Shown here: piece after piece, positions 35,760 to 64,000 of the stretch | Position numbering within the stretch: the stretch's first letter is position 1 | Layout of the letters: every line of letters begins with the position of its first letter | Assembly: GCA_022578965.1 (NCBI GenBank) | Contig: MU400675.1 | Coordinates: 1-64,000, forward strand | Source of the DNA: Xylaria sp. FL1777 | Lineage: Eukaryota; Ascomycota; Sordariomycetes; Xylariales; Xylariaceae | DNA: 64,000 bases | Reading direction: 5' to 3' | Made by a program: the position numbers and the translations under genes | The notes under the pieces: model-generated | The model's input: the letters and a program-made list of their open reading frames with translations, nothing else | Databases searched by the model: none | Told to the model about the DNA's origin: nothing

Positions 35760-36300
35760 ATTTAACATAAAAATTAAAATTTTAGGTGATATAGCTTTTA
35801 GTATATACGTTAAATGGAAGCTAAATCTAGAATGCTTTGATTTTTTGCTTATTAATAATACAATTAAAGAAAAATTAGACTTAAATCTACTAGAAAAAGC
35901 GAAGCTTTTTTATGTTAAGGCTTTTTAAGGTAGCTTTTAAGAAGAGTATTTTTTAAAGATTATATAGCGAAAATATTATGCTATAAAGCTTGTTACCTAG
36001 CTTTTTAGATCTTAAAACGCTGTGCTTTACTAAAAATACAAAATGCTATTAAAGGACGTAAAGCATACTAAACGCTTTAACGTTTATTTGTTTTTTTTTT
36101 GCTGTTTTTTTATTATTAGTAGTATAAATGCATGCAGAAACTGCATTTTTGCAAACAGGAAGCAAAAATGTACGTTTGTTAATCTAGCTAATAATATTAT
36201 AACTTATTTAAGCACGTTTAACGTTTTAAATAACTTGCAAAAGAATATTACAAAAAAAAATAGCTTAGCAAAACATGTTTTTAAAAGTAATAAATTATAA
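35760..36300 (+). pseudogene. Degenerate ORF with C-x2-C-x8-C motif, unidentified
   Basis: Frame 1 from about 35,770 reads 90-odd codons with few stops (ILGDIAFSIYVKWKLNLE, then EKAKLFYVKAF near 35,895) and then runs into an 85-codon open frame, ATG 36,043 to TAA 36,300. The interior stops are TAA/TAG. The last part holds INACRNCIFANRKQKCTFV (about 36,124-36,180), a C-x2-C-x8-C pattern that could be a small zinc-binding or Cys-rich motif, preceded by a hydrophobic run. The TTTTGC array immediately upstream is in the same frame. I cannot name the family. Confidence 0.45.
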
Positions 36301-41440: not shown

Positions 41441-41488
41441 TAATAAAGTTAATAAAAGTACACAAAAACGTTAGTAAAGTAACTTGCT

Positions 41489-41552
41489 TTTTTAGTTTTT
41501 ATTTTAGTTGTTTTAGTTATTTTAGTTATTTTAGTTGTTTTAGTTGTTTTAT
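41489..41552. repeat. 10-bp tandem repeat TTTTAGTTRT, about six units
   Basis: Consecutive TTTTAGTTGT and TTTTAGTTAT units, differing only by G/A. Confidence 0.9.
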
Positions 41553-41772
41553 AAGCGGCTTTATTAAAAGCAATATTAATAGAAATAAAAGCGTTAAATA
41601 TATTTAGCAAACTAATAAATATGTTAGTATATAAATAAAAAAAAAGGAGTTATAAAATAGGTATATAAATTAATTTGTTGCAAGCTAACTAAAGGTTTTA
41701 TTATGAAGTTAAGCTAGCTTTTAAAATATATAAGTAAAAGCGCGCGTATAATTATTAATATTTAGTTAAGTT

Positions 41773-41893
41773 AATTATATACGTGAGTTTAAATAAGTAT
41801 AAGATTTTAAGTTGCTAGATAAAAAATTATAATTGTATACGTAAGTTTAAATAAATATAAGATTTTAAGTTATTAAATAAAAAATTGTAATTA
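41773..41893. repeat. 58-bp direct repeat, two copies
   Basis: TATACGTRAGTTTAAATAAR begins at 41,778 and 41,836; both continue with TATAAGATTTTAAGTT and AATAAAAAATT-like ends. Confidence 0.85.
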
Positions 41894-42079
41894 TATATGC
41901 GCGCGTTAAAGTAAAAAGAACTACTATAAATAATAATAAAGAATATGTTAAAATTTCTTAAAAAGTATATATATAAATGCGTACGTAAGCTAAATATAAA
42001 TTAACATATAATAAAAATTAAATATTAAAATAATATAATAAATTAAAGCATAATAGTATTGTAATTAAAACAAAGATAA

Positions 42080-42325
42080 ACTTATTTATTTTTTTTAAAA
42101 TAATTATACTTAGTAAAATCTCTAAACTTATTTTACATAAAATAACTTAGCATTATTTCTAAATTTATTTCTTTTAAAATAACTATATTTAGTAAAACAT
42201 TTCTAAACTTATTTTTTGTAAAAGTAGCTATTTTTGTAGCATAATTATACTTAGCAATATTTTTGAACTTATTTTCTATAAAAGTAGCTATTTTTATAGT
42301 ATAATTATACTTAGTAAAATATTTA
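42080..42325. repeat. Irregular 50-60-bp tandem repeat
   Basis: Alternating blocks CTAAACTTATTTT or GAACTTATTTT, AAAGTAGCTATTTTTRTAG and ATAATTATACTTAGYAA recur about four times, becoming more alike to the right. Confidence 0.75.
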
Positions 42326-43592
42326 AGAACTATAGCTATGTTTTATTAATAATATAAAACCTTGCTTATAATAATATAGCAATAAAATAGCTAATTATAA
42401 AATAATAAAAAAACGCTTAATAGTATTTATGTTATAAGTTTATATAAAAAGCATAAAAGATTAAAATAATAAAGTTAAAAGTTTTAGTTATGTTAACTAA
42501 TATAATACGTTTACGAACTTATTTATTTAAAGTACTTTTTTTAGTACTTTTTATGCTACATGTATTATTATTTTTATTTAGCAAAGTGTTAAGTTCTTTT
42601 AAGTAGCAAATTGCTTTTTTAACGTTTATATATTAATGTTTTAATATATAAGCAGCAGTTTTTTAAAACAGTACATTATAAGCATATCTTTTATTATATT
42701 AAACAAGCTAATTGCTGTTATTATTGCTATTAGTATTAAAGTTAAAGTTTAAATTAATTTTATGCTACTTTTTAAGCAATCTATATTTTTAATAGCTAAA
42801 ATGCGTTATTAAGCCTTTGCTACTAAAGTTAAGGTTAAAACTCTAGCGAATCTTTTTAAATAAATTATACTTGTTTTAAAAATGCTTATAGCTTTTTAAA
42901 TAATGCTTTACTAACTAGTTATTTTTGCTAAATAAGTAATATTACAAATAAAAGCATAACTTAATAAAACAATTTATTATATTTTTAAATTGTTTAACAA
43001 TAATAATAATATTTGCTGCTTAAACTTTATTTTGCATAATAGCTTTATTATGCTTACGCTTTTATTAAATAAAGGCGTAAAAATAAATATAAGAACTAAA
43101 GTTCTAAGGTTTATTAAGGCAACCTAAGCAATAAATAGCAAAGTGGTAAAAACTATTAAGCTTAGCTTAGCAAAGCAAAGCTTGCTTAACAAGCAATAAA
43201 AAAGCATTATATAATTTAGTTTTATATACGTATAAGAAGTTATATAAACAAACCGAACTAAAAAAAGCATAAAAAGCTATAAATTAAGCTAAAAAATTTT
43301 TAGTGAGCAGATTATTATAAAAACTACAAAAGTTTTAAAGTAAAAATAAACAATAACAAAGTTAAAGCCTAGTTAAAAAAGGGGCTAAAGTAAAAGTCAT
43401 AAGTATAACGCTAAAAAAAAAGGTTAATAAGTTATTTTCTACTATAGTAATATTAATAAGAAAAAAGAGGGTATATAAAAGTAAAGCATAGTTATTATAT
43501 ATAACATAACTAAAGTTATAACGCTTAGCGTTACTGTTTAAAAAACAGCTAGCAAATTAGCATTTATAAAAAGCTATAGCAAATTTATACAT

Positions 43593-46500
43593 AAAACTTC
43601 TAAGCTTGTTAGCTTTAATAAGCAAAATTCTTATGTTAAAGCAACTATTATAATTAGCTTAACTAAATTACTAAAGCATGTTAATAAAATTAAAAGCGCT
43701 TATGCAAATAATAAAGTTAATACGCTTAAAGTTTACGCTAAAACTTATAGCTATAATAGCAATAATAAACTTGCTTTATTTAAGCTACTTATTTAAGTTA
43801 GCTTGTTTATTAGTAAGTTTAGCGTAATAAAATAAGACATTAAAACGTAAAGCTAAACTTTAATACTTATTTTAAGTTAAAATATAAATTATGTTTAGCT
43901 GCTTAAAATATAACTTTATTTAGTTAGCTATTTTTATTAAGTAAAGCAGCATAGCTTCTTTATTAGCATTAATATATTAATAACAAAAGTTATTATATAT
44001 ATACAAAGCTTTAATAATGCAAGTTTTGTTTAAGTTAAAATATAAAGCGTTTATAAACTGCTGCTTTATAAAAAGTAGGAGTATTTTAGTTAAAAAAACC
44101 TAATTAAAAAAGACTTTAGCTAGCAACTTAAAAATGTTTATAAGTTTTTATTGCTAGTTTTTTATAAGTAATACTTTTTAAGCCTTGTTTAAAACAACAT
44201 AGTTAATTAAGTGTTAGTTTTTTTGCCTTGTAATAAAGTTAATTTAATTGCGTTAAGTTATAGCTTTAAGCGTAATAAAAATAATAAAGCTTTTAGCTAA
44301 GCTAAAATTATTGCTATTTTATATAGTAATATTAATATTAAAAGCGCTAAAATGCTTTTTAGTGTTAAATATAAGCAATAGTATAAACTAAATAATAATT
44401 ATACAAAACTTAAGCTAAATATAAGCAAGCAGCGCATAAATAATAAACTTATTGCTTTTAGTACTAGCTATATAAATAATGCTAGCATAGTTACATATAG
44501 TATTAAGTATTTTTTTTTACGCGAACTATAGCTAAAGGTTAATATGCTTAAATATAATTTTTGCAGACTTTAAAGTTAAAACTAACTTAAAAAAGCTTTT
44601 GCAATAAGCTTAAAGCTTAAAAGTTAAGTTATTATTAATTAAATTATGCTTACGTTTTGCTAATTTTGCAAAAGCGTTATTATTATTGTTGTTTAGCTGC
44701 TATAACGTATATTACTAAAAAAAAATATTAAAAAACTTAGTAAAAAGGTTACTACTGTTATGCTTAACTAAGTAAACAAGCTTAGCAGTATAAATAAAAT
44801 AAAACGCCTAGCAATTAAAAACGTTATTGTTTTTAATAGTAGTAGCACTTTTATTATTTTTTTTGTTGTAAATGTTAGCTTTAGTTATAATTTTAAAGCT
44901 TAAAACCTTGCTAATAAGTTTACTATTAAAAAATTTACGCTTAAAAGTAATAGTAATATATTTTTACTTTTAAATGTTAATTTTTTAGCTAAAGCTGCTT
45001 GAAGTAATATTAATAAAGCTAGCTGTAACTTTATTTGCAGAAATAGTTATATTATTTTTGCATAGCGCTACTTTAAAAAAAAAGAAAAAAAAGGAAAAAA
45101 TGCTATTGCAAGCAACAGATTTAACTAACTAGGCAAAAAAAAGAACAACAGAAATATACGTAATAATTAAGCGAAAAACTTAAGAAAAAAAAAATCAATA
45201 AACTAAAAACTTGCGGTTTGCTTTTTATTAGCTTTTTTGCTAAATAGTATAAATACTAACTTGTTTATTATAAACAAATATGTTGCAAAAGCTACTGTTT
45301 ATTATATTTATTATATAAATTGTTATAAGCTTAATATAGCAAGCAGGCTATTTGTTAATAAAATAAACAACAATGCTAAGCTTTTTTAAAAAAACTAGCT
45401 TTTGCTTAGCATAATTAAAAGCAGCTTTAAAAAAAATAAATATGTTGTGCTGCTATTTGTTTTTAAAATTGCTAATAAAATTAAAGCAATTTATAAGCAA
45501 AACGCTAGCGCTATCCGTTTACGCAATGTTAAAAAAATGCTTTAAAAAGCTATAGCTAAAAACCTTATTACTACGATTATTTTTAATGTTTTCTAAGTTA
45601 AAAATTAAAAAAAAAGCAAACAATACGCTTAAAAAAAGGTCTTTAAAAGCATTAGTAGCGCGTTTAACAAAAAGCTTTATAAAGTAGCAAATATTATTGC
45701 AGCTAATATTAATACTGTTAGTAATAAGCAAAACTGCGCTGCTTTTTGTTTATTTTATGCTTGCTAGCTAAGTAATAGTTTTTTTAATTTAACTAGCTAC
45801 GCTTTTTGTAAAGCTAATTTACGTTATAAATGTTTAGCTGCTTAAAGTTTTAACTACGTATATAAACCTAGCTATTATTGCTTTAACAGCATAAAAAATG
45901 TTGCAGAAAAATTAGCTAGCAAAACTTACAATAATAAGTTAGCTGTATTAAAAACAACGCGCTAAAAACCTAACTAATTTATACATTAGTAAATATAGTA
46001 TATTATTATTTATTTAGCTAAACTAATGGTTATTAATAGCTTTAAAGTTTTTGTATAAAACGTAAAAAAAGATTTTAATAACAGTAAAAAAATGATTTAA
46101 GAACAAAATGCTTATATGTTATAAGCTATTATTTTTAATAGCTATAGCTGCTAAAGTAAACAAAAAAACACTTTTAAAAATATTGCTGCAAAGCTTATAG
46201 CGTACAACTAAGTTAACTAAGCTAAAAATAATGTTGTTTTTTTTGCGAAAGCTTAATTAAAGCTAGTTAGCTTTTATAGCACAGCTAAGCATAATAGCTT
46301 ACGTATTATTTATAAAAGCAAAAAAGCCATGCTTAAAGAAACTATTTAAAAAAGATAACTAGTTTAACAAATAAGTTAAATATTACAAAAGTTGCTTTTA
46401 TGTTTATATGTAGTTTAAAATGCTTTTAGCTTTAATGTTATAGTTAAAAAAAATAAACAAAAAATTATAATTTTTGCAATAATTTAGTTGCTTAATTATT

Positions 46501-47279
46501 AAGTAGCCTTTAATAGCAAGGTAACTTTTCGTACAAAAGGCAATACGTAAAAAGTAAGCAATTATATTATTAATAATATAGTTATAAATGTTTGCTTTTA
46601 TTATATTAATAAGGGTTTTTACTTTAAAGTTTTATAAATAAGCGTTAAACTTAAAAGCTTTAAGAAATTTGTTTAGTTTAGCTAAACTATAAGCTTTAGC
46701 AACCTTGTTTATATATAATAATATGTTTTGCTTTAAAAAGCAAGCAAAAATAAAGCTAAGCAACTATGTTTGCAGGCTATGCTTTAAAACCCGCGTATAT
46801 TTAACTATTTTTTTGGACTTAAGGGCTTGTATAATAGCGGGTTTATAGCAACGTTTATAGCTAAAATGCTTTTTTTTAACGTAAAATTAAATGCTGCTTT
46901 TGCTTACAACGAAGTAGTAGCACCTAGAATATTTATAACTTTTAATGGTTTAAAGAAACAAGTATAACAATAAATTATAGTTACTGTTAATATTAAAACT
47001 ATAAAACTATGTATTAAACATAGTTATTAACTTATTTAATATAAGATATTTACTTTTTTTTAGCTACATAATTATTTTGTAAATAATAGCTACGTTTTTA
47101 TAGCAGTTATTTAAATAACTTAAGATTGCTAATTATATTAAGCAAAGAACGTTTTAATATTAGTTGTAAAACAATAAAAAAAAGCTGCTAATAGTGCTAT
47201 GCTTAATAAAAAACTACTAGTTAAAGAACTAAAAGCGCTTATTTAACATAATGCACTACGTATATATAAGTAATAATAT
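43593..47279 (+). pseudogene. Ty3/Gypsy retrotransposon gag-pol relic in one reading frame
   Basis: Frame 3 keeps register for over 1,200 codons. Landmarks in order: gag-like KYKQ*YKLNNNYTKLKLN (about 44,370-44,420) and N*LKKAFAISLKLK (44,580-44,622); retropepsin-like LLNSINTNLFI (45,237-45,269); KQNASAIRLRNVKKML (45,495-45,542); a GAAxF-type block NCAAFCLFYAC (about 45,732-45,764); SIKNVAEKLASKTYNNKL (45,888-45,941), matching F-S-K...L-P-P-H-R-x-Y-D-H-K-I; reverse transcriptase KVTFRT (46,518-46,535) and YYIN; FFGLKGLYNSGFIATFIA (46,809-46,862), matching F-L-G-x-x-x-Y-Y-R-R-F-I; RNase H NYFVNNSYVFIAVI, then LNKKLLVKEL...RIYK (47,202-47,270), matching L-N-R-R-Q-x-R-W ... Y-R-P-G. In-frame stops are TAA/TAG where Gln or Trp is expected. 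The YxDD motif and integrase core were not placed. Confidence 0.8.
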
Positions 47280-47994
47280 AAAATACTAAATAATATGTAG
47301 CATAAGGCAAAAACGTAAAAATAAATAAACAGTTATAATTAATATAGCTTACTTAAAAATACTAAAGCTAGTAATGCTATAAAAAAATGTAAAAAAAATG
47401 AAAAACTACGCGTTTTAACGTATTATAAATATTTAATTACTTAAGTAAGCATATAAAATAAAATATATAACAGGAAAAAAAACATAAAAGTAAATAAAAA
47501 GGTAATTTTTACTAAAAGTTAGCATAACTATAAAAAAAAGCATATGTTGCTTTTATTTAGTATTTTTAGCAGGTATACAAACAAAATAATTATATAAACA
47601 CTAAGTGCATAAAAAAGCAAGTTAAATTTACAAAGAGCTATAGCAAATATTTAACAATATAATAATAAATAATATATAGAAAAAAATAAGACGTACTAAT
47701 AAAAAATAATTAATATAGTAAGTAAGATTTTAGTATTGTTTCCGAAAGCTGCTAGCTTTTTAAGTAAAAACTTAAAAACCTAGCTAAAAGTCGTAAAATG
47801 CTTTTAGTTAGCATTTATTATATAAAATAATAATTATTAGTAATAAAGCAGCAATATATTATTTTTTAGATTATAGCTTAGAAAGAAGTTTTGCAGTACA
47901 AAAAGCGTGCTAAAACTAAGGTATTATTTTAATAAAAAAGAATTAAGGTAATAAAAAGCGGCTAAGCTTAAGTGAAAAGGTGGAAAAAAATAAT

Positions 47995-48056
47995 AATGTA
48001 AGAAAAAAAAAGAAAAAAAAAGAAAAAAAAAAAAAAAGAAAAAAAGAAAAAAGAAG
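47995..48056 (+). repeat. Polypurine tract, AG-only for about 57 bases
   Basis: From about 48,000 the plus strand is AAGAAAAAAAAAGAAAAAAA-like with no pyrimidine until TACTTAAGTACTT at 48,057. It could be a retrotransposon polypurine tract, but no long terminal repeat start (TG) follows, so it may equally be simple low complexity. Confidence 0.7.
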
Positions 48057-48243
48057 TACTTAAGTACTTATTTATTTGCTTAAAGTAAATAATTTAATAG
48101 GAAAAAGCAAATACTTAAAAGTAAATATAGCATGTTTTTATTTAATTATGTTAAATATAGCTGTTATTTTTTATATGTAGTCTAAAATCAAATGATTAAT
48201 AAGAAATAAAAAAATAAACAGCATTATATAACAGCAAAAAAAG

Positions 48244-48304
48244 CTTAATTAATTAATTAATTATTTTTAATGTTAAGCATAAAGCTTTAGCTACTTTATA
48301 TACT
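48244..48304. repeat. Direct repeat, left copy, starting in an AATT run
   Basis: An AATT run, then TTTTTAATGTTAAGCATAAA and GCTTTAGCTACTTTATATAC. It matches 49,835-49,893 with C/T and G/A differences. Confidence 0.8.
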
Positions 48305-48426
48305 TTAAACGTAGCAAGCTTTATATTAAAATATATATAGTAAAATATGTTAGTACAAAAAGAATTTAATTAATTAATTAACAAGTTAATTAATTAAAAT
48401 ATACGTTATAATTTTACTAAATATAA

Positions 48427-48519
48427 TGCATCCGGATTATTTTAATGATTATAGTTATTACGCTTTAATTTTTCAAGCTAATAATTCCGGTAATTATACT
48501 AAAACGCTTATTATATAAG
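48427..48519 (+). other. Small stop-free island, 30 codons, unidentified
   Basis: ATG at 48,427 opens MHPDYFNDYSYYALIFQANN and goes on to TAA at 48,517-48,519. It contains CCGG twice and TTCAAG, sequence that has nearly vanished elsewhere, so it is much less mutated than its surroundings. It is preceded by palindromic TTAATTAATTAA sequence and followed by T-rich DNA. Too short to call a gene. Confidence 0.3.
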
Positions 48520-49749
48520 CACTAAGCAAAACTACTTTTGTTATTTTATCTTGCTTTATTTTTTCTTTTTTTTTTTATTTTTTTTTTTTTTTATTTGTTT
48601 AATTATATAGCACTATATAATATTAAAACGTAGCTTAGCTATTAAAACACAGCTTAAACTAAGGCTTAACTAACTATAAAAATACTATTACTAAAATTAC
48701 TGCTTATATAGCAATAATTTATATTATACTTTTTTTATATTTGGACTTTAGTTTATTTCTTTGTATAAAAAACAGCTATATATATATAGCACTAAGTAAA
48801 AGCCTAAAAAGCAGGGCTAATAAATGCAGTTTAATTATTATGTGTGCTTTTAGGTTTAAGTTGTAAAATATTTTATATATTATAGTTTTTTTTTATAAAG
48901 TTAAAAATAAATAGCTTAAAATAGCTTTATATACTATAAGCCTTTAAAAAGGCTTAAAAACTATAAGTTTTTATATAGCGTTAATTTAACTAACTAATTA
49001 ACTAGTTTTTTGTTATTATGCTAGTTGTTTAGCAAAGTTTATTAAGTTAAGCTTTTGCTTTTTTTTTTGTTAAGCGTATTATTTACTAAAGCAAATAGTT
49101 GTTTAGTGTTATATAAAACGCTTTTAGCTATTTTTTATGCTGTTTTGTTTTATTTTTAAAACTAATGCTTTAAAATTTAAAGCAATATTATGCTTTTGTT
49201 TTTATTGCATAAAATTAAACTTATAAAAGCTAATTAGTTTATTTAACTACTTTATTTTACTTTAATACTTAATATAACTACGTAATAAGGTTAAATAAAC
49301 GTAGATATTAAAAAAAGCGTGATTTTTTTTTAAATAAACAAGCTAATATTTTAGAACTTAAAAGATTACTTAAAACTAGAAAAGCATATAACGTTTTTTT
49401 ATTGCGTTTGCGATTTAAGCGTTACTTTATTATTTTGTGCATTAGTGCACTATTAAAAGTATATAAAAGCAATAGCTAAGCACTAAAAGTTTTAAAGAAC
49501 TTAAAAACTTTGCGATTTTTTTTGTAAAATTAAAAAATAAAATAAAGAAAACTAAATGTACGTAAGCTGCGCAAAAGCAGCTGTTATATAAAAGCTGCTA
49601 AAATAGCACTAACTAAGTTAATAAATAAAACATTCTTTTTTTATATATAAATTTCTATATAAATTTAAGTTATAAATTATAAAGCTTTAGTAGCAATATT
49701 AAAGCAAGCTGTTTATAAGCATAAAGAATATAGAAAAAAAAGAACAAAA

Positions 49750-50410
49750 AATAACTATAAAAAGAGTATATACTAACTATATAATGCAATTAAGTAAATA
49801 ACCAAAGGCAAAAGCAATATATACTAACTAATTAATTAATTAATTAATTAATTGATTCTTTTTAACGTTAAGTATAAGGTTTTAGCTACTTTGCATACTT
49901 ATATACTAATTATATAATGCAATTAAGTAAATAACTAAAGGCAAAAGCAACTATAAAAAGGTATATACTAATTATATAATGCAATAAATAACTAAAGGCA
50001 AAAGTAACTATAAAAGGGTATACATTAACTATATAATATAATAAATAACTAAGGGCAAAGGCGATTATAAAAGGGTATATATTAACTATATAATGCAATT
50101 AAGTAAATAACTAAAGGCAAAAGCAACTATAAAAAAACAAATTATATAATATAATTAAATAAATAACTAAAAGCAAAAGTAACTATAAAAGGGTATATAT
50201 TAACTATATAATGCAATAAATAACCAAGGGCAAAAGCAACTATAAAAGGGTATATATTAACTATATAATATAATAGATAACTAAAGGCAAAGGCAACTAT
50301 AAAAGGATATATATTAACTATATAATGCAATAAATAATTAAAAGCAAAAACAACTATAAAAGGGGTATATATTAATTATATAATGCAATTATTAAACAAC
50401 TAAAAAGCAA
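49750..50410. repeat. 57-bp minisatellite, about ten units
   Basis: AACTAAAGGCAAAAGCAACT or variants start at 49,933, 49,990, 50,047, 50,109, 50,165, 50,222, 50,279 and 50,337, with looser units from 49,755. Each unit goes on with TATAAAAGGGTATATATTAA and CTATATAATGCAATAAAT. Some units carry an extra TTAAG. As 57 is a multiple of three, the minus strand stays open over several units (Tyr-Ile-Val-Asn-Ile-Tyr-Pro-Phe repeats); I take those frames as artefacts. Confidence 0.92.
49835..49893. repeat. Direct repeat, right copy, starting in an AATT run
   Basis: Seven AATT units lead into GATTCTTTTTAACGTTAAGT and GGTTTTAGCTACTTTGCATA, matching 48,244-48,304 about 1.59 kb to the left. The right copy keeps C/G where the left has T/A, so it is the less mutated one. 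Confidence 0.8.
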
Positions 50411-50740
50411 AAAAATAAAAAGCAAAGTACTTAATAAAAACGTAGCAGAATTTATAACCTAAGAGTAAATATAGGATGTTTTTATTTAGCTACTAAAAAA
50501 AAAGCAAGTTAAACATAGCATAGTTTTTATTTGTACATATAAAAAATAGCAATTAGCATAGTTAATAAGTTATTAGCTTTAGTTTTTATAGTATGCTTTT
50601 TTATGTTAAACAAAACCTAGTTTAATTAAAAGTAAATAGTTAAAGTATACTAGGTTTTTTTTTTGTGCTTTTAAGTAAAAAAGAGGCCTTTTTATTTTAA
50701 CCTTACTTTTTATTAATAAATTAATAAGTATAAAAATATT

Positions 50741-51191
50741 GCAAGGTTTTTATTTAGCTTATATAGTTTACTTATAATTATAAAAGTTAAAAAACTATAA
50801 AGCAGTATAATAAGCTATAAAGATTTTATATAGTAAACTAAATAGGTATTTTATAGAAAACATTATATTTGCTAGATCTTTTCAAGTTATTAAAAAGATT
50901 AAACGGTTAGCGTACAAACTTAAGTTTCTAGTTTATTTTAAGATATATAATGTTATTTCTGTAGATTATTTTAAACTTATATTTTTTATAAATTATTTCG
51001 GAAAATACTTTTTATACGCTAGCAAAATTTATTTAGAATTATATACTAAGAGGATTATTAATAAAAATTACGAAAAACACAAGTATTTTTTTGAGTATAT
51101 TAGTTTGGGCCTTAAATATTATAAATGGGTTACTTTTGCAAAATTAAAGGAGAAAGCTAAAAAATTGCTAACGAATTACAAACAAAAGTAA
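50741..51191 (+). pseudogene. Gypsy integrase C-terminus with chromodomain-like end, stop-free
   Basis: From 50,814 to the TAA at 51,189-51,191 one frame runs 125 codons with no stop; two TAA precede it and fit Trp codons of a V-W-x-x-x-x-N-I-K-T block. ILYSKLNRYF matches R-P-S-x-K-L-D-x-x-F, ARSFQVIKKIKRLAYKLKF matches G-P-F-x-V-x-x-x-x-x-x-x-A-Y-x-L-x-L, and FKIYNVISVDYFKL matches I-H-x-V-x-x-V-x-x-L. The last part (YFFEYISLGLKYYKWVTF then AKLKEKAKKLLTNYKQK) fits a chromodomain, Y-L-V-K-W-x-G-Y-x-x-x-x-x-T-W-E ... L-x-x-A-x-x-L-x-x-Y. These are typical of Ty3/Gypsy chromoviruses. TpC-containing codons survive here. It may be the 3' end of the 43.6 kb element or of another copy. Confidence 0.75.
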
Positions 51192-52526
51192 ACAAAAAGC
51201 TACTATTAAAAGCACTTTAATGCATATATTAATATTAAGCATATATTAATATAAAAGATAAATTAGCAGTTAAACTAAGATATTAAAATTAAGCATTTTA
51301 GTGCATATATATTAATAGCTAATAAAATAAGCTAATAATAAAAAATATACTTTAAAAAATAAGTTAAAGTTAAGTATGTTTTTATATATTTTGTAAAACT
51401 TTGCATTTTATTAACCTATAATATAATAATAACATTTGTAGATTTAACAAGAAAGTTTAAAAGCTTTTTGCAACTTATTTTTTTGTTTTTTTTTGGCCGG
51501 CAAAAAGAGATTGCAAAGCTAGGATTTATTATAATTTACTTGCGTGCAAGCTTATTTAATAATGTTTAAAATAGCTAAAGTTTTAGCTTTAATAAAGGAT
51601 TTAATATAGCAATATAGTATAGATTAAGAAAAGTTTAAAAGATTATTTTTTAAAACAAAGGCTTAAGCATTTTTAATAACCTAAAAGCTATAAAATTATA
51701 AATAGCGTTGTTAAAAAGCAAAAGTAAGCACTTAGGTAACCTAGCGAGGTTTATTTAGTATGCTATTAATAAAACGCATAAGATAAGCAAAGTTATATTA
51801 AATAAAGTTAGCTTGCGTAAAGCTATGCAAAGAGTTAAAAAAGAATACTATGCAAAATATATTATAATAAATAACTAAATACTAATAACTGTTAGTATAT
51901 ACTAGCAGAATAATATAAGCGTTTTGATTAAAAACGCTTGCGAGGTAAAAAAAAAAGCTACAGGTTAAAATGTTTAACTTTGTATTTTGCAAAAAAGCAG
52001 AAAAACAAATATAAAATATGTTAAAAAGCAAACAAAAATAAAGTTTAGTTTTTAGCTTATTATTATGCAAAAAGCTTCTTAAAACTTTTAATGTATTAAA
52101 TAAGAAATATTATAGTGCTTTTATATTATGGATTGCAAAAAATATATAAAATAAAAAAAGCTTTTATTAATACGATTTTATAGCGTGCTTTTTTAATTTC
52201 TTAAATAATGCAGCTTTTAATAGGTTATTTTATGTATGTTTATTGCTGTAATAAAAGATAAGTTAACTAAAATAATCTTAGTTATAAGCTTTGCTTAATA
52301 AGTTTTTTTTAAGGTATAATATAACAATTAAACTGCTATTGCTAAATGTAATGCTTAAAACAATTAGTTAGTAGTTTATATATTATTAATTGTTTTTTTT
52401 TGTAGTTTTATTTTATAAAATTGTATTAAACTAGGTTTTAATAGCTATAATTTTAGCAGATTTAAGTTTTAAAATAATTAAGCTGCTAGTTTTAAGAATA
52501 TTAAAAGCAAAAAAACTTATAATAAG

Positions 52527-52685
52527 TAAGTTTAGTAAAATATAACAGTAAAAAGTAAATTAAAGCAGTTAAGTAAGCATTATGTAAGCTTGCTAAAATA
52601 TAACAGTAAAAAGTAAGTTAAAACAGTTAATTTAGCATTATATAAGCTTGCTAAAATATAATAGTAAAAAGTAAGTTAAAGCAAA
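52527..52685. repeat. 58-bp tandem repeat, about 2.8 copies
   Basis: AAAATATAACAGTAAAAAGT begins at 52,537, 52,595 and 52,653, each followed by AARTTAAARCAGTTAA and ending GCTTGCT. Confidence 0.9.
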
Positions 52686-52865
52686 TTATAAATAATTTAT
52701 AAAAAAGAATAGCAAAAGCAGAAATAAAAAACAGTAGTACTAAATATTTACAAAAAAAAAACTATTTTAATTATAAAAACATATAAAAATAATAAGCATA
52801 TATTAAAAATTTATTAATTAGTAATTATAGCAAAAAATATATTATATATATGTTTATAAAACTAT

Positions 52866-52975
52866 TAATAGTTATTATTATTATAATTACCCTTGCTATT
52901 AAAAAAGTTATAGTTATTCTTGCTACTAAAAAAGTTATAGTTATTTTTGCTGCTAAAAAAGAATTTATTATTACT
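52866..52975. repeat. 27-bp tandem repeat, about three copies
   Basis: CTTGCTAYTAAAAAAGTTAT begins at 52,892, 52,919 and (as TTTGCTGCT) 52,946. On the minus strand it reads FFSSKNNYN-like units (52,865-53,047), an artefact or relic of an Asn-rich repeat. Confidence 0.85.
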
Positions 52976-53699
52976 ATTATTATTTAGCGAACTAGAAAAA
53001 ATAAAAAGAAAATAAAAACTAAAAAACTTTAGCTTTATGTTTAGCAAAACAAAATAAGCATACTAATTTAATTCTAGCTAAAAAATATTTGCAGTATTTT
53101 TATAATAAGTTATATTTTTTTACTTGTTTATAACTATTAAAAGCACTATAAAAAAAAAATAGTAAAACTTGCTAGGATTAAATATATAAGTAGATTTAAT
53201 AACAGAATTAATAAAGCATTTAATTAAGTAGTGCTTATAAAATACTAAAATAGTTATAAGATTGTTTTAAGTTATAGTGCTAAAAAGCTATTTATTAATA
53301 AAAAAGCAAGCAGCAAAATTGTTATTATAAGAAGTAGTGCAAATAATATAATTAGTATAATTTTAAAAAAACAAAAGAAGATTTTTTTTAAGAATATTTA
53401 CAAAAGTAAACCTTAGAATATTTAAACTTAGCTAAACATAAGGTTTAAATTAGCTAAAGCTAAAGTTTATTAATATTAATACATAATTAAAAGTATAAAG
53501 ATGTTTTTTTAACAATAGCTTATTAAACAAAAATATAGCACAAGTAATAGTATTAAACGTAGCAAAACACTAAAAAAAGTTTTTAATAAAAATATTTGCT
53601 AAAGCGTTAACTAAAAATAAGCATTAGTAGTAATAAAGCAAAAGCAAAAGGTTTTGCAAAATATATATTAAAGTTAAATAAAAGCGCGCTTTTTTAAAT

Positions 53700-56600
53700 A
53701 AAAAACCGCAAAACTAGCTTTTTAAGCGCTTTACTAAATTTGTACGTAAGCTGCTTTTTTGCTTAATTTTGCTGTTTAAAATTTGCAGCTTTTTAATTTA
53801 GGATTTTTATATTATAATAAAACTTGCTAGCTTATATATATAGCTACGTAGTATTAGCTTTACTAGCTATTTTTTTAAAGGTTTTATAAAAAAAAACAGT
53901 TGTTTTAAAGAATATATAATTTATAAATTAATAGTAAATATTAATTAAGCGTAAAGTGCTAAGCAAATTAACAAAAAGTAGCTTTATAAAAGCGTAGCAC
54001 TTATAAATAGTATGCTTATAAGCATAGTTAAAACATATTTGCTATAAATATAAGCTGCTTTAATTATAATAAATAAAACATTTTAAGCAATAAAAGTTTT
54101 AGAAGTAATATTTGCTAGCTTTATATATATAAACAGCGCTTTTTTTTTAGTAGTAAAAAACGAGCTTAAAGAGCTATTTAATATTAGCTAATGCTTTATA
54201 GAACTAAAAACTGTTTTAAGCTTAAAACAAGCAAACAAAAAACTAAGCAAGCTTAGCATAAATATAAAAAGTAAAGCTAAAGCAAAGATTGCTTAAAAAG
54301 CTATAAAAGCTAGTTTAAACTAAGTTAATAATAATAATGTTAACTTTTGTTTTTTGAACGCTATAACTTATGTATATTTAAACTAGCTTTAAGTATTACT
54401 TAGCAAAGTAAAGCTTTTATATATGCTTGCAAATATTGCTTACTTATGCGTTATATAAAAAAATAATAATAATGGACGCTTTTTTAGCTAGGTTATTATA
54501 GCTTGCAAAAATGCTTTAAATGTTAAATTTAAATAAGCTTAGCATAAGTACGCAAGCTAAACATGCATTAATATTATTAGTAAAGCTTATATTAATAATA
54601 TGCTTATTATTGCTTTGCATATTATAAACAAAAGAAAAGCTTTTTGCGTTTTATAATACTGCTATTTATATAAACTTACGTATATAAGCAATTATAATGT
54701 TATTAAAGTAAATATTATAATAGTTTTAGGAAATTTGCTAAGTTTTATGCATTTAGTTATTATAAAAGATTTAAAAAGCAAATTAAAAAATATTGCTAAT
54801 AAATTAATAGTTAGCATTTAAGTAAGCAAGCTTAATAGCGCTAAAATAAAAAAGCTTAATAGTAAGCGTAGTTTTTTGCTAAAGTGCAAAAAAGTTAAAG
54901 AAGTATAGCTTTTTTTTTTTAGTTAAATATATGTTTTTAGTAAAAACTAAAAAAAGTAATTATTATTTATTACTAAACATAATAGTAATTTTAGCGTTAA
55001 AAAAAATAGTAATAGAAATTAAAGCAAAAGCTTTAATAATTTTAAAAGCTTTATTAATTTATAAAACGTTTAGCTTAACGTATTTAGCAAAAAAGTAATA
55101 AATAAAAAGCATACAAATAAAAATAATAGTTTGCTGCAAAATAAACTAAACAAAAGCTACTATGTTTTTAAAATAACTTTTATAGCTTTATGTTTTTTAA
55201 AACGTAGAATTAGTAACGCAAATATTAAAGTTTTAAAAAATATTGCATATTATATTATTGTTAGTTTTATGCTAAAGCTTTTAAAAAACAACCTAAGTAA
55301 TAAACTAAAGGAAGTTAAAAGCTATAAAAATATACTTATAACGCTTTATAGCAAAGCTTGTAAAGTTATAAACAAGCTTTTTAAAGTTAAGCAAATTAGC
55401 AATTTTGTTTTTTTTAAAAAGAATAGCAGCTTTGCTAGCAAAATAACAGAAAACTTGTAAAACTAAGGCTTTTTTAATAATAAAGTAGTTGCTACTAAAG
55501 TTAACATTAAAAAAAACAAAAAACATTTTATTAGCAATATTGTTAAGCTGCTTATTATTATTAGCTATAATAAGTGCTATAAAATGTTTAAAGAAAGCAT
55601 TATTATTATTATTGTTTAGTTTGCTTGTTTTAAACTAAAAAACGTTAGGTTTAATAAAGGGCAAAGCTTTAAAAAGCAGGTTTATAGGCTTAAAAAAGAA
55701 GTTTTTGCAAAAGAAATTTTAATAATTGCTAGAAATTATTGCTATAGTTTTTTATTAAATACTAGCTTTAGTAATATTTAGTTTATTAAATAACAAAGCA
55801 AGTTTATTAGATTTTTTGTTAGTATAAAAAGCAATGCTTTAATAGTTTTTGTTAGTATAAACTTTAGTATAGCTAGAAAAAAAAAAAATGCTTTAAAAGT
55901 ATAAAATGTTATGCTTTATTAAGTAAAATTATGCAAGCAAACGTTATTAGTTTAAAGCGCTAAAAAGTTAATTTATAGTAGCAAAAGCAGGTTTATTAAA
56001 GCAAAAAAGAAGCTAAGCGGTACTTTATAAAAAAAAAGCTGCAGTATTTTTTTTAAAAGGTAAAAAAACGTTAAAGCATGCTAGCAAAGTATTTTAAATA
56101 TATAGCATAACTTTTATATAAAAAGTTATAATTTTACTGCTACTTAAGCTATTTATAATAAGCTTAAAGCTATATAAAAGCTAAGTATTATTAAAAAAAA
56201 TAAGCTGCTTTTGTTTTTTATATAGCTTGCTAATTAAAGTAATAAAGCAATTTAACTTGTTTTTTGTAAAGCTGTAAAACAAGCAAATAAAGCTAGTTTT
56301 TTGCTATATTTATTATAATATAAGCTTTTTTTTTTAAAAACAAATAGCAAGCTTTATATTAATTTTGCTACTGTTTGTTATAAAGAAAAACTACTATAAA
56401 GCAGCAAAAGCAAGCAAGCTAATAAGCAAGCAATTAAAAATAGCGCTAATGTATTTTTTAAAAGGTACGTTTTAAAACTTTTGTATAATATAGCAAAAAG
56501 CAGAAAAACTAGTAATATTAAAATGCAAAAAGTTTTTAAAGCTAAAGTTAGCAAACTATTGCATTTTTTTAGTAAAGCTAAAAATATTATTTAAGTTAAC

Positions 56601-58560
56601 TATAGTAGCGCTAATAGCATATAACTAAGCAAAAGTAATATTAGTTTAAACAAACTAATATAGTAAGATTTTAAAAATATAGTTTAACTGCTAAAACTTA
56701 TAGGAAAGCTTATTTATAAATTTGTTTTAGTTAAACTTTTTTGCTATAATAATAGTAAGCATAGCAATTTAAACAAAGAGTGCTTTTCTTTAGTTTTTAA
56801 GCTATTTTAGAACTTTAAAAGCTTTAACGTTATATAGTTATATAGCAAACTTTTTTTATTCTTAGAGTATATTTATGTAAATAGTATTGCAAAAAAGGAA
56901 ATTTTGCTAGTAATTAAAAAGCAAAACAAAAGCGTTACGCAAAAATTACTGCAGAACAAATTAAGTTATATGCTTTTAATAAACAGCTAGTAACTTTATG
57001 TTATTATTATTATACTAAAGAAATAAATCTTTAAATGTTATATTTAAGAATTATTCCTACTTTTTGGCAATAATATGCTTATTATTATAATAAATAGTAT
57101 TAAAAACTTATATTATAAAGGCTTGCTTAATATAAACAGTAAAAAGGTTCTTTATATAAGCTTTATTACTAAAAATATATTTTTAAATAGCTTTATAAAA
57201 TTGCTATAAGTTAATATTGCTTAAAGGTATAGCAAAAGAAAAGTATTTTATGTTGTATAGCTATATGCTAATATAATTATTAATGCATAAAAAGATTAAC
57301 TAGTTTTTAAAAAACATAAAAACAAAAAGCTAATAGTAGTTATATAGCGTGCTGTTTATTTAAATAAAATTAAATATAGCAATGCATTAAAACTTTTAGC
57401 GTTTAATAAACGTTAAAATGTTTTTGCTTTACTTAAACTTTTTATAGATTAAGGTAATAAAGCGTGCTAATTATTTATAAATATTTATGAAGATTTTTAG
57501 GTTTTTTTGCTAAGTAATATAAACTTAGCTATTAAAAGAAATATTGTTTAACTTATAAAATATGCTTTTATAAAAGCAGTTATTATAAAATTTTTTATAA
57601 AGATTAAAATTTTTGTTTTTAAACTTTCTTTTAAAAAAGACTTAAGCTTTAAAAGCTTTATAAAGTATAGCTAACAAAGCAAACTACAAAATAATGTAAG
57701 TATTTTTTCGGAAAAAAACAAAGCGTATATATACAAAAGCAACATTAAATAGCTTTTTATGTTTAGCATAAAAGTTAATATAAGCTTACAAATGCTTAAC
57801 GTAGCAATAGTGCTAGCTAGATTTTTTTGCTTATATAACTGCTTTAAAAATAAATATATTAAGGCTATTTTATAGAAAAGCATTTATGCTGCAGTTAGCA
57901 GTAAAAAATTAATGTTGCTTGTTATTAATAACATAAATAATAAAAAAGCTATTAAAAGCTTAAACGTTAATATATGTTTTTGCAAAAACTGTGCTATGCT
58001 TATTTTTAGCATAATAATAACTATAAATAAAGCAATAAAACGTATGCTTTTTATTAGCATTATTTATGTTTATTATAGTATAAAAACCAAATAACTAACT
58101 TTGTTTAAAAGTTATAATATAATTAAATATATAACCTTAAAGAAATGTAAGGTTAAATAAGCAAAAAATACTAGCGTTATTATTTTTTAAAAAAAAACAA
58201 ATAAAATAAAAAAAAGCTATAGTAAAAGTAAAAAAGAAGTAAAAAGCCTTTTGTTAACTTTTTTTGTTAAAGCGTTGTTTTTTATAGTTATATATCTTAA
58301 AGTATATTTTAGAGCTATTTGCTTTAAAAGAAAAAGTGCTATAAATAGCAAAGTTGCTAAAAAGTTTACTTAAACTGTTATAAAAACTAGCATTTAAAGC
58401 GTTAATAAAAGGGTTATTTTAGTTATTAGCAAAGTTATTTTAGTTATTAACAAAAGGGTTATTTTAAGCGTTACTAACGTTATTAAGTAAGTTATTTTAA
58501 GTATTACTAGCGTTACTAGGTTTATTATTGCTATTACTAAATAAGTTATTTTACTTTTTA
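53700..58560 (+). pseudogene. Very long single-frame relic of a large protein, family unknown
   Basis: Frame 3 can be read without losing register from about 53,700 to at least 58,560, about 1,600 codons. Between 53,991 and 58,094 I counted about 66 in-frame stops in 1,368 codons, all TAA or TAG and no TGA; an unstructured sequence of this composition should give about twice that. Long open parts are 55,131-55,460 and 57,912-58,094. Features: NNNNGRFFS near 54,462-54,489; a basic stretch LKKEVFAKEILIIARNYCYS near 55,690-55,750; SKQANKQAIKNSANVFFKRY near 56,410-56,470; ICFCKNCA near 57,975-57,998; a repeat at the end (58,408). It is Lys/Asn/Ile-rich through mutation. I found no polymerase, transposase or helicase motif. 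A subtelomeric helicase-like protein or a large DNA-transposon protein are weak guesses only. Confidence 0.55.
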
Positions 58561-58562
58561 TT
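58408..58562 (+). repeat. Irregular repeat around GTTATTTTAGTTATTA
   Basis: GTTATTTTA recurs near 58,412, 58,434, 58,458, 58,491 and 58,545 with GTTACTAGCGTTACTA-like spacers. In the frame of the upstream relic it reads KRVILVISKVILVINKRVIL, so it is probably its C-terminal repeat. Confidence 0.7.
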
Positions 58563-60999
58563 ACTATTATTATTTTTTTTAATATTAGTTTTTATATAAA
58601 ATAAGTCTAGAATTTAAAAAATATTATTAGCTAAAGCTTTGCAAAGCAGTTTTGTTTGTGCATTAAGCAAAGCTTTAAAAGTAAGATTTTTTAGCAAATA
58701 AATAAGCAGCATATTGCTAAAGCAAATAAAAAAAGCTCTTAAAGCTAACTAAAAAAACGCGCAAAAAGATTTAAGTTTTAATAAAAATGTATTATTATTT
58801 TAATGTTTTTAATAAAAAATTGCATATTAGTACTAAAAAAAACGTTTATAAGCAAATTTATTGCAAGTTATATATTAAGCTTAAAACTTTTTAACTTTAA
58901 GCATATTAATTAAATATTTAAAACTAGTAGCAAAATAAATAAACATATTAAAATTAATTGTTAAGCTTATAATATTACTATTAAAAGAAATAAAGCGATT
59001 ATAATTATTAATTAGTAAGTATGCTAAAGTATATGTAGTATTTAAAGCAAGCTGCAGATTTTTTTGCAAAACTAAATAAAACAAGTAAAGTTATTAATTG
59101 TTGTTTAGCTATATAAAAGTGCTATAAAACATAACAGCATAATTTTTGCAAATAATAATAAGCTTTAACTTAGTTAAAAGATTAGCAAAAAAATTAAACT
59201 GCTTTATGCTTTAAGTAAAATTTATAAGTACTTTACTTAGTAATAAAATATATTGTAGTAATATAGTATAATATAATAAGGAATTTTAAGTAAAATCTAG
59301 TATTATAGTAAAAAAAAAATCAAATTATGGAAAAAAGATGCATTACTTATTAAGAAATAAAAAAGCATAAATTGTAAAAAGCTAGCAAGTAAATTAAGTA
59401 ATATACGATTTAAAGTAATAAGTAATACTTATTATAGCATTTAATGTTTATAAGTTAATTTTAAAGAATAAAGTTTTAAAAGGCAGCAAATAAAAAACTA
59501 AAAAGCGTACAAACAAAAGTATAAAAGTTTACAAAAGTTAAAACAAAGAAAAATAAGCTAATATACTTAAAATAAAAGTAATAAAGTTAAAATGCATAAA
59601 AATTAAGCGTTTAAGGTAAAATAAAAAATATAATATAATAAGTTAATTAAAAAATAGCTATTAAAGTTAAAATAAAACAAGTAAGTATTTAAGTACTTAA
59701 GCAAGTTATAAGTATTAATTTACTTATAATGTTATGCTAAAAGAAAAGATTATTATTTTTTATTTAAAAAAGGATAAAGTTATAATAAAACTTTTAGTAA
59801 ACGTAAACCTTACGTTTGCACTAATAATACTAAACAGCTAATTAAACTGTTATGCTTAAAATAACATAAAATAATAAAAGTAGCATAAGAAAAAAAAAGT
59901 AAAAAAAATAAAATAAAACAAAAATAGTAAACATATATATGTATAGTAAGCAAAAAAAAAGCGTGAATACTTAAATACTTTAGGTAAATAATATATTAAG
60001 CAGTAAAAAAAAAAAAAAAAAAGCATAATAAGTAAATAGTTATTACTTTAAAACTACAAATAGTTTTGCGTTAAGTAAGTAAATTGCTAAATATATTACT
60101 TAGTTATATTTAAAGCAAAAGTAATAAATATGTTATATACTTAAATAATAATTATGTTATAGCAATCGAAATAATTCCTTTATTAAAAGAAAAACAATTT
60201 ACTTTATACTAAGTTTACTATTACATATGTTAACTAAAAGAAAAATAACTTACTTTATACTAAGTTTACTATTATGCTTTAATAAGTGCTTGCAGCATTA
60301 AAATAGCTGCAGGAGTTAAAAAACTAAAATAAGGAAAAAAATTTAATGTTTTAATAAAAATATTATATCTAAATAAAGCTTTTAATTAAAGTAGCTAATT
60401 AATGTTGAATTAATTAAGCAAAAAGAAATAAAACTATATATTAAAGCAAACTTAAATATTATTGCATACTTTTTATACGTTATACTTAAATTAAACAAAA
60501 TAACTATACTTTGTAAATATTACTAGTTAATGTAAATAAAAGTAATAGCGTTTTAAAGTAAAATATATTTTATGTTAAATAATAAAGTTATAAAAAGCTT
60601 ACAAAAAACATAAAAGCACAACATTAGCTAAGCAAACATATTAAATTTAAAAAGGTAAGCAAACTAAGCAAAGCAATATAGCTATAAAGCTAAAATATTT
60701 ATTAATAAAAAAAAGGAACTTATAAGCAATATAAATAAATATGTTAATAAAAAAGAAATAAGCTAAAGCTTTTAAAGTAAAATTTAAACTTATATTTTTA
60801 ACTTTTAATAATAAACTTAAAGCTACGCTTTTGCGAAGTATTAAAAAACGAAAACATTAAGCTTTTAAACGCTAAAATAGCTAAAAAGCTAACTATAATA
60901 AACTAAATTATAGCTAAAAAGCAGTATATAATATTTATAAAACATAGTTTAATAAAAGTTATATTATATTATATAAAACGTATTAAAAAACTTTATTAG
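58561..60999. other. AT-rich RIP-like DNA, no gene recognised
   Basis: The large relic's frame may continue to about 58.9 kb. A minus-strand open frame at 58,881-59,084 lies opposite that continuation and is probably a shadow. The rest (59.1-61 kb) is A-rich with no supported feature; two near-repeats AACTTACTTTATACTAAGTT lie at about 60,197 and 60,247. Confidence 0.5.
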
Positions 61000-61850
61000 C
61001 GTTAATTTTAATTTTTGATTTTGTTTAAATAAGTTTGTTTTAAAGTTATTTATAATTTAGTAAAGCTACTATTGCTAATTATTAAAGAAATAATATTAAG
61101 TAGCAAAAATGTTTATTTGCTATAAAGCATTAATATAAGCAAAGCTAGTATTTTTGTTGTTTTATTTAAACGTAAAACTAAAAATACTATTTAAGCTAAT
61201 AAATAAAATGCCTAGTAAGCAAATATTAAAAAAGCTACTGCTAAGCTATTTAAAATAAGAAATAAAAAGCTAATAAGCGTATATAAAAGCATAAACTTTA
61301 GCTAAGTTAACTTTACAAGTTAGCTTTTTATATTTGTTAGTAAAAGTAAAAAGTTGCCTTTAAGCGTTAAAAATTTTATTCTTTAAAGTGTTAGCTTGAT
61401 TTTTTTGATTAAATATTTTTTTCTAGTTTTGTGCAACTAAATATATATTAAAAGCAAGCTGTTTTACAAACGTAGCGCTATAAGCTTGTTTTTTTTTTAC
61501 TTTAAGGTTTAGTTTTTTAAGTAAAAATAATGCATTTATAATCTTTGTTTAAAAAAAAAAAAAATTAGCAGTTTTTTAAGTTTTTTGCTAAACAAAAACG
61601 TTAATTATGTTTTATTACACGTTTATTTTTATACAGCACTGCGTTTTTTTATGTGCTAGCTAAAGTTAACGCTATTGTTTTTTATTATACTAATACTGCT
61701 TGTTTTTTTTTTTTTTTAATGCTAATATATAGCTGCTGCTTTTTTGTTTTAGCGCTTATGTATAGCTGCTTTTTTTACTTCGTAAGCTTGCTAAGATCTT
61801 TTGTTAGCTATTTTTTAATAAAGCTGCTTAAGTTTTAACATATATTTATT
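61000..61850 (+). pseudogene. Degenerate ORF of unknown family
   Basis: A plus-strand frame from about 61,100 reads with moderate numbers of TAA/TAG, including LNVKLKILFKLINKMPSKQI (61,168-61,227) and a Trp-like cluster near 61,395-61,415 where two TGA occur, rare here and fitting TGG decay. A hydrophobic 61-codon open frame (61,653-61,838) follows; it is Phe/Leu/Cys-rich and could be chance or a membrane-like tail. No family motif was recognised. Confidence 0.3.
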
Positions 61851-64000
61851 AAGCTACTAAGTAAGCATATTAATAATTCGGTGTATTAATATAACTAAAG
61901 CTAAAAGCAAAGCATAATAACTTTTATAAATATAATTATCGCTTTTTTTAGCTTTATTATGTTATATAGCAGCAAAGTTAGTTTTTTTTTTGTAAATCTT
62001 TGCTTAATTTAAAGCTTAAGTAATATTATAATCTTTCTATTGCACGATTTAATAAAGCTAAGTACTAATAAGCAAGCAAGTTAAATAAAACAAGGAAAAC
62101 TAAGTAAAATTAAAAAACAAGTTAGTAATATTGCTTATATAGCTAACTATATAACAAATACTGTTAGTATGTGTTTTGCTAAGCTTGCAAAAGCAGAACT
62201 TTTTATTTATATTAAAGTTTAAAAAAGTAGCGTTTTAAGTGCTAATAAAGTCTTTAAAAACAAAATAACTTAAGTAGTCTAGCAGATTGTTTTTTATTTA
62301 TTATATTAGTTTTTGCTTTAAAACATTCTAAAACTAATTTTATTATATTTTTAATACTTAAAAGCAAATATAAGTAGCTAAAAATAAATAAAAATAAAAA
62401 AACAAGCTAAAAACTTTAGTTATATGCAAAATAAAAAAAAATAGTTTAATAAAGTTAAGCAGTAATATAAGCAAGTTTTTATTGCTATAGCTAAAAGATT
62501 TATGTTTATTAAAATAAACTATATATTTAACTTATAATAATACAAAGTAAATAAACTGTTTAGTAGTAAAGTAATCTTTTTGAAGTTTATTAAGCACTTT
62601 GCTAATTAAAGAGGTTAATTTTACTAAAAAGAAAAAAATAAAAAAAAATGCAACTTTGTTATATAAAAATTTATAATTATGCTATTTAATAGCATTAATG
62701 CTAATTTTTAGTACTTTATTTAAAAAAAGCTTGCAAATTATTTTTAAATTAATTTTATAAAGCTTTTTAAGTTGCTATATTTTTATATAATTTGCAACTT
62801 TTTTTTTTAAAAGCTGACTTATTAATACAAGATTTATAAAATTTTTAGCTATAGTTATACAGTATAAACTAATAAAAAAAATGTTATAAAAATAAACAGA
62901 TGCTTTTTGCAAAAAAGCTTTTAGCTAAAAACTTTTTTTTAGTTTAGCTATTAAAAAAACTATTAAAGAAGCTTTACTTAAGTGTTTTATTACTAGTTAT
63001 ATAAAAAGTAGTTTAATACTAGCTTTATTATAATTTATTATAGTTAACTAGTTAACATAGTTAGTAAAAACCTGCTTTGTACGTAATAAAAGCTAATAAT
63101 TATTAATTTTAAAAGCAGCATATTTTTAATTCTGCTTAAATATAAGCAAAACTTAATTAATATTTATTTTACGAGGTTTGTTATTATAAAGTGTAGCAAA
63201 GTTAAAGCAGATAGCTTTTAAAAACACTATAGTAATAATAAATAGTACTAAGAAAATTAAATTTAGCAAAAAAAAAGAAATAAAAAAGGAAGTACTTTAT
63301 AAAAAAATAAAGCTAAAGCTATAAAGTAAGCAAGCTATAAACATAAATACTTAGAAAAACAAAAACGTAAATGTTAAGAAAAAATAAAGCAAAGCTTAAG
63401 TTTAACAAAAAAAAAGTAAAAAAGTATAGTTAAAAAATAAAGAAAATATAAAACACTTAGCAAAAAAAGATATAATTAGTACTAAAAAGATTAATTAATA
63501 TATATGTATTAATAAAAAAACAAAATATAGTAAAAAAAGTAATAAAAAAAGTAGTAAAAGAAGTAATAAAAAAAAAAGTAAAAGAAAAAGTGCATAAAAA
63601 GAATACTTATTAAAATAATACTAAAAAGTATAATTTTAGCAAAAATAATAGTAATAAAAATAATGCTTATATAAATAGTTTTTAAAAGATTAATTTTAAT
63701 AAAGTTGTTGTAAATGTAGTAATTACTAGTAAAAGTAATAGTAAAAAAAGAGTAATGCTTATAAAAGTAAAATTTGCAAAATTAATACAAATAAAGTTAG
63801 TGCTAGCTAAAAGGCAAAATAAATAGTTAAACTAGGCTAAATAAAAAATGCAAAAGCAAAAAATAGCTAAGTTAGTTTTAGTTATAAAAAAGGTGCTATT
63901 ATATAAACACTTAAATTTAAATAGGTAAAAATAAAAGTTATAAATATTTAAATAGCTTTAAAAAATAAAAGTTAAACTAATAGCTAATATTTATATTAAA
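61851..64000. other. AT-rich DNA ending in Lys/Ser-codon-rich purine blocks, no gene recognised
   Basis: From about 63,270 the plus strand is A/G-rich (AGTAATAAAA and AAAAGTAAAAGAA units near 63,530-63,600), reading Lys/Ser/Asn low complexity in one frame. It might be the basic tail of another decayed protein, but nothing specific is visible. Confidence 0.5.

What the first reader, a model, noticed from the sequence alone, without database searches (positions are those of the whole stretch)
53700..58560. About 1,600-codon decayed ORF with an unbroken frame and no recognised family
One frame stays in register for nearly 5 kb although the region is dense in TAA/TAG. In 53,991-58,094 I counted about 66 stops in 1,368 codons, all TAA/TAG, which fits Gln/Trp codons hit by C-to-T change and almost no indels. 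The inferred protein matches none of the RT, integrase, pogo or LINE motifs I could find elsewhere in this window. It may be a large element or gene not yet described.
Basis: partly seen in the sequence, partly recalled or inferred. Interest (0 to 1): 0.75.

Follow-up and report, generated by a model that had tools for sequence, protein, structure and literature searches.

The report
Mutation-killed giant mobile element
The decayed reading frame is real: it is one of three very large dead genes of unknown family inside a roughly 110,000-base repeated element that looks like a giant Starship-type transposon, probably destroyed by a fungal defence that mutates repeated DNA, although no Starship recombinase was found in it.

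Summary
In detail: 53,991-58,094 has 67 stops in 1,368 codons, 48 TAA, 19 TAG, no TGA. Stop counts alone do not pick the frame (one antisense frame has 74 of 1,367), but tests that transitions cannot disturb do, and a diverged paralogue in the same element aligns with it (E 3.9e-34; codon alignment 764 against 68-166 for controls). Copies differ by 741 transitions to 5 transversions, with only two indels inside the frame, 12 and 33 nt: repeat-induced point mutation (RIP) of near-identical copies. The frame belongs to a ~110 kb element. Five right ends fall at one point (C170 15 bases further on) and run into five different flanks; the junctions carry a TTAYTRTATWAT-like site, which also borders the left end in C114. 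That is how Starship giant transposons behave, but their captain recombinase (PF11917) was not detected, though the same search finds an equally mutated captain on another contig. Pfam, PDB, PHROGs and a large protein database gave no family. Best reading: a Starship-like element whose captain is lost or undetected, carrying giant genes of unknown family. The host is inferred, not shown, to be a fungus.

The parts
53493..58560 (+). ORF1: decayed gene of about 1,600-1,700 codons (the finding), unknown family
52655..53611 (+). Coding-like stretch in another frame just upstream of ORF1, possibly an earlier exon (inferred)
   Evidence: 48.8 bits with the codon model; no Pfam match
58402..58529 (+). 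Minisatellite at the end of ORF1, length differs between copies by 12 and 33 nt
42378..46952 (+). ORF2: second decayed ORF of about 1,525 codons, unknown family, found only in C170, C114, C117 and C108
13309..17900 (+). Paralogue of ORF1 in the same element; end estimated from the C114 copy. In the window copy the two halves seen are in different frames
37031..41332 (+). Four further coding-like stretches (37,031-38,113; 38,238-39,008; 38,743-39,666; 39,731-41,332), no family
   Evidence: Pfam on these or their C114 counterparts gave nothing significant
10894..64000 (.). Part of the ~110 kb element held in the window; it continues to about C170:80,453. At 10,894 the copy is cut off by a different high-copy repeat

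Best explanation
The frame is the RIP-killed relic of a large gene carried by a ~110 kb mobile element of the Starship kind. Shown: four copies of the frame and five right ends in one genome, the ends at one point with five different flanks and a TTAYTRTATWAT-like motif at the junctions, the same motif at the left end of the one copy read at both ends, and copies that were nearly identical before transitions spread over their length. Inferred: a recombinase inserted the element at such sites; extra copies triggered RIP, which killed them; ORF1, its paralogue and ORF2 were passenger or accessory genes; the captain was lost, acted from elsewhere in the genome, or is too altered to see; the host is a filamentous ascomycete. 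For the protein itself I would guess a large multidomain intracellular protein, for example NLR-like, at low confidence (about 0.15).
For: Right end within one base in C114, C117, C108 and C168 and 15 bases further in C170, five different flanks. TTAYTRTATAAT occurs 4 times on the window-orientation strand of the 130 kb of C114 read, and two of these are at the two ends of the element. Transitions to transversions 741:5, 757:5 and 197:7, and 7,316:316 over 69,037 aligned bases of C170 and C114, the transversions clustered in a few bins. Captains with DUF3435 exist elsewhere in this genome: 11 matches on six contigs. Size and junctions agree with Starship descriptions seen as passages.
Against: No captain: PF11917 gives no match on C170, C114, C117, C108, C168 or C171, and Pfam on the inward strand of about 10 kb at each end of C114 gives nothing; the first ~42 kb from the left end of C114 shows no long coding stretch. 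No terminal inverted repeat was seen by eye (no systematic test). The junction motif was defined after seeing the junctions; C117 and C108 fit it with one base off. C117 shares C114's left flank for at least 441 bases while their right flanks differ. C171 diverges about 25 bases inside the left motif. Direct repeats on both sides with an unshared flank are read in C114 only.
Confidence: 0.6

Rival explanations
1. A giant element of a kind not yet described: the recombinase or transposition protein is one of its own giant ORFs (ORF1/paralogue or ORF2), not a Starship captain.
For: Site-specific ends without a detectable captain; giant ORFs without a family; ORF1 and its paralogue are kept together in one element.
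Against: TTAC-type junctions already have a known user, Starship captains; a captain may simply be lost; Pfam would miss a diverged recombinase after RIP.
Confidence: 0.18
2. A large segmental or subtelomeric duplication that spread by recombination and was then hit by RIP, with no mobility of its own.
For: RIP acts on any duplicated DNA; C114 and C117 share their left flank; no recombinase found.
Against: Five right ends at one point with five flanks and a common short motif.
Confidence: 0.12
3. An endogenised large DNA virus.
For: Large size, giant ORFs, mostly one strand in the detected part.
Against: Few coding-like stretches in the left 42 kb of C114; no Pfam family in the stretches scanned; PHROGs negative for ORF1, though that library covers viruses of bacteria and archaea only.
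Confidence: 0.05
4. No gene: an accidental low-stop frame, or the true gene is on the other strand.
For: One antisense frame has nearly as few stops; the codon model also gives 164 bits to an antisense tandem-repeat stretch outside the element, C170:80,458-82,914, so high scores in simple repeats are not proof of coding.
Against: Cross-trained codon model, in-frame indels and the frame-specific paralogue alignment (764 against 92-141 in the other five frames).
Confidence: 0.02

Closest known systems
Starship giant transposons (captain tyrosine recombinase with DUF3435)
   Same: About 110 kb (Starships typically around 100 kb; passage); one end point with many flanks; TTAC-containing junction motif (TTAC(N7)A and TTAC targets; passages); extra genes on board; RIP-degraded Starships are described (passage).
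   Different: No captain detected; the motif is TTAC-T-R-TATWAT, not exactly TTAC(N7)A; no inverted repeats seen; the captain should be the first gene, but the left 42 kb shows no long coding stretch.
Helitrons (Rep/PIF1 helicase elements)
   Same: Encode one very large protein (recalled).
   Different: No PIF1 match in the element: the 3 matches are on C213 and C49; the junctions carry a repeated target-like motif.
DUF3723 proteins and the RIP'd Starship remnant on C152 of this genome
   Same: Same genome, same kind of mutation, captain and DUF3723 on one contig.
   Different: ORF1 and ORF2 give no DUF3723 match; the two DUF3723 matches are on C152 and C95.

Membership tests
Starship | Captain tyrosine recombinase (DUF3435, PF11917) as first gene | tested here: not met
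   11 PF11917 matches in the genome, none on C170, C114, C117, C108, C168 or C171 (only first-look candidates are scored). Pfam on the inward strand of ~10 kb at both ends of C114: 0 families. Positive control: captain on C152, locus 22% G+C, 24 stops in 360 codons, 68.6 bits.
Starship | Length 15-700 kb | tested here: met
   About 109.8 kb between the motif copies in C114; length range from a passage.
Starship | Direct repeats / common target site at the ends | tested here: inconclusive
   Motif at both ends of C114 and at five right junctions, two of them with one base off; motif defined after the fact; only C114 read at both ends with its own flanks.
Starship | Terminal inverted repeats (in 18 of 20 elements of one study; passage) | tested here: inconclusive
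   None seen by eye in the ends printed; no systematic search.
Starship | Presence/absence at one site between strains | not testable with these tools
   One genome only. C405 holds part of C114's right flank, but without the motif at that place, so it is not a clean element-free site.
Starship | Host in Pezizomycotina | not tested
   Genome unnamed; inferred from RIP-type change, captain matches and cytosine methylases.
Helitron | Rep/PIF1-type helicase | tested here: not met
   PF05970 matches only on C213 and C49.
RIP product | C-to-T/G-to-A change in repeated DNA | tested here: met
   741:5 and 757:5 transitions to transversions; changed sites not confined to CpA.
Known protein families for ORF1 | Pfam curated cut-off, or a significant match in PDB, PHROGs or the protein database | tested here: not met
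   Best Pfam: HLH E 0.044 and Glyco_transf_28 E 0.084, both below cut-off; PDB 0; PHROGs 0; protein database 0 at E <= 1 among 7,993 and 7,983 scored candidates.

The most novel reading that the evidence does not exclude
A new class of ~110 kb site-specific giant element that needs no captain: the ORF1/paralogue pair or ORF2 is an undescribed recombinase or transposition protein, unseen so far because all copies found in this genome were erased by RIP.
Probability: 0.18. Interest if true: 0.8.

Novelty: new variant of a known kind. Interest (0 to 1): 0.5.

Why it matters
Starship finding leans on captains. A multi-copy giant element with TTAC-type junctions and no detectable captain would be missed by such searches and raises the question of how it multiplied. 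Its giant ORFs are candidates for an undescribed protein family. The transition-blind coding test and the RIP-aware codon alignment show that genes can be recognised at 20% G+C, where stop counts mislead.

Tried and rejected
Pfam on six frames of 53,001-59,400, X at stops: nothing. Pfam on the four copies of ORF1: only HLH, in 2 of 4, best E 0.044, below cut-off. Read-through with Q/W: Glyco_transf_28 0.084, PCMT 2.4, DUF4183 1.1, all below cut-off. Pfam on ORF2 and other coding-like stretches: nothing above cut-off; the best is NNH2 (NACHT N-terminal helical), E 0.0024, 18 bits against 27, at C114:23,071-23,733. PHROGs and PDB: nothing. Protein database: nothing at E <= 1; whether it holds many fungal proteins was not tested. 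Structure prediction of ORF1 residues 1-640 with two rows: mean pLDDT 31, useless; no fold search was made. Pairwise search of captain pieces against the element: nothing, but the same test hardly linked captain pieces to each other, and for some pieces the frame taken was probably wrong, so it proves nothing. DUF3723, PIF1 and RVT_1: no match inside the element. tRNA scan of 12 loci: none; Rfam on one 10 kb locus: nothing near a gathering score. C405 as an element-free site: rejected, no motif there. The purine/pyrimidine segment scan has artefacts at sequence ends, seen in its shuffled controls too, and its reversed control reaches 57 bits. The trained codon model scores 164 bits in a tandem-repeat stretch outside the element.

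Full report
Observation. The frame at 53,700-58,560 exists as described: in 53,991-58,094, 67 stops in 1,368 codons, 48 TAA, 19 TAG, no TGA. The window has 19.5% G+C (base counts), TA/AT 1.36-1.72 in 2 kb steps and hardly any TGA in this region. Stop counts alone do not single out the frame: one antisense frame has 74 in 1,367.

Coding. RIP makes only transitions (C to T, G to A; passage), so the purine/pyrimidine pattern survives. A codon model that sees only that pattern is positive and best of six in all 17 windows starting 53,701 to 58,501 and gives 115 bits for 53,718-59,012; the reversed control reaches 57 bits. A codon model trained on ORF2 alone scores this frame +234 bits and the other five +32, -216, -263, -317 and -367; without stop codons +290 against +108. 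ORF1's model gives ORF2 162 bits and ORF2's model gives ORF1 of C114 178 bits; a second-order Markov sequence gives no segment of 22 bits or more and the reversed sequence one of 24. Against this test: it also gives 164 bits to an antisense tandem-repeat stretch outside the element (C170:80,458-82,914) and 20-45 bits to several antisense stretches, so only the long, high-scoring ORFs are relied on.

Paralogue. The X-masked protein searched in the whole genome gives 8 matches: the window, full copies on C117 and C114, three matches of a broken copy on C108, and a diverged relative at C114:71,485-73,404 (30%, E 3.9e-34) and C170:13,309-15,195 (29%, E 1.2e-27). A codon alignment that allows for RIP carries this to nearly full length in C114: 764, against 92-141 in the other five frames, 166 for ORF2 and 68-122 in 12 codon-shuffled controls; the middle part aligns poorly, and in the window copy the second half seems to be in another frame. 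All copies found have many stops. ORF2 matches only C170, C114, C117 and C108.

The element. C170 10,894 to about 80,467 aligns with C114. At 10,894 the window copy changes to another repeat with 37 further long copies among the 40 candidates scored of 363, while C114, C117 and C108 share sequence beyond that point. The right end is at the same base to within one in C114, C117, C108 and C168, and 15 bases further in C170; the five flanks differ. C171 diverges at C114:115,875. Between the motif copies at C114:6,085-6,096 and 115,900-115,911 lie about 109.8 kb (coordinates). C108 has an insertion of about 7.4 kb inside ORF1. Long left-part matches are on C114, C117 and C171, plus a 1.7 kb piece on C13.

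Junctions. TTA[CT]T[AG]TATAAT is found 6 times on both strands of the 130 kb of C114 read; of the 4 on the window-orientation strand one lies at each end of the element. At the right junctions C114, C170 and C168 fit it, C117 and C108 fit with one base off. C117's left flank equals C114's for at least 441 bases, to the end of the contig, although their right flanks differ; this is unexplained.

Decay. Around ORF1 the window differs from C114 by 741 transitions and 5 transversions, from C117 by 757 and 5, and from C108 by 197 and 7 over about 2 kb; the only indels within ORF1 are 12 and 33 nt. Over 69,037 aligned bases of C170 and C114 there are 7,316 transitions and 316 transversions; five bins (10, 50, 60, 75, 80 kb) hold 266 of the 316. 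Changed C and G lie in several contexts, not only CpA. Cytosine methylase genes without stops are on C17, C14, C98 and C31, as RIP would need, though not specific to it.

Family. No family in Pfam in any reading tried, PDB, PHROGs or the protein database. The Pfam test has some power: PF11917 finds a captain in a 22% G+C locus with 24 stops in 360 codons, and of the 20 RVT_1 matches above cut-off 16 carry 5-12 in-frame stops. My model puts unaltered residues in ORF1 at 60-64%, so weakly conserved families would be missed.

Comparison. Papers were seen as passages only: PMC11623301 (captain always first gene, typically ~100 kb, derelict RIP'd Starships), PMC12289983 (15-700 kb), PMC12153272 (direct repeats 2-12 bp in 19 of 20, TTAC(N7)A), PMC11623449 (TTAC consensus), PMC12506042 and PMC12543289 (RIP). 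The element behaves like a Starship in size, junctions and fate, but the captain was tested for and not met. I call it Starship-like, not a Starship. Four literature searches do not allow a claim that captain-less giant elements are unreported.

Noticed in passing
window 9000-10893: A different high-copy repeat ends at 10,893: 37 further long copies among 40 scored candidates of 363.
   Followed up: partly
G000:C152:9517-10596 and 45854-46282 (L037, L044): RIP'd Starship captain and DUF3723 remnant on one contig: a separate dead Starship.
   Followed up: no
G000:C114:92367-92538 and 92777-92870 (L028): Two short pieces of the element (~170 and ~94 bp) match many other contigs at 72-85%; not tRNA by ARAGORN, nothing near threshold in Rfam.
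   Followed up: partly
G000:C117:128222-128666 and C114:115876-116316: Two copies of the element share their left flank but not their right flank.
   Followed up: partly
G000:C108:78084-85495: An insertion of about 7.4 kb splits ORF1 in the C108 copy; not identified.
   Followed up: no
G000:C114:121578-122036: RIP'd reverse transcriptase in the left flank, outside the element.
   Followed up: no
G000:C114:23071-23733 (L022:3071-3733): Weak NACHT N-terminal helical (NNH2) match, E 0.0024, below cut-off, in a coding-like stretch of the element.
   Followed up: no
   Followed up: partly
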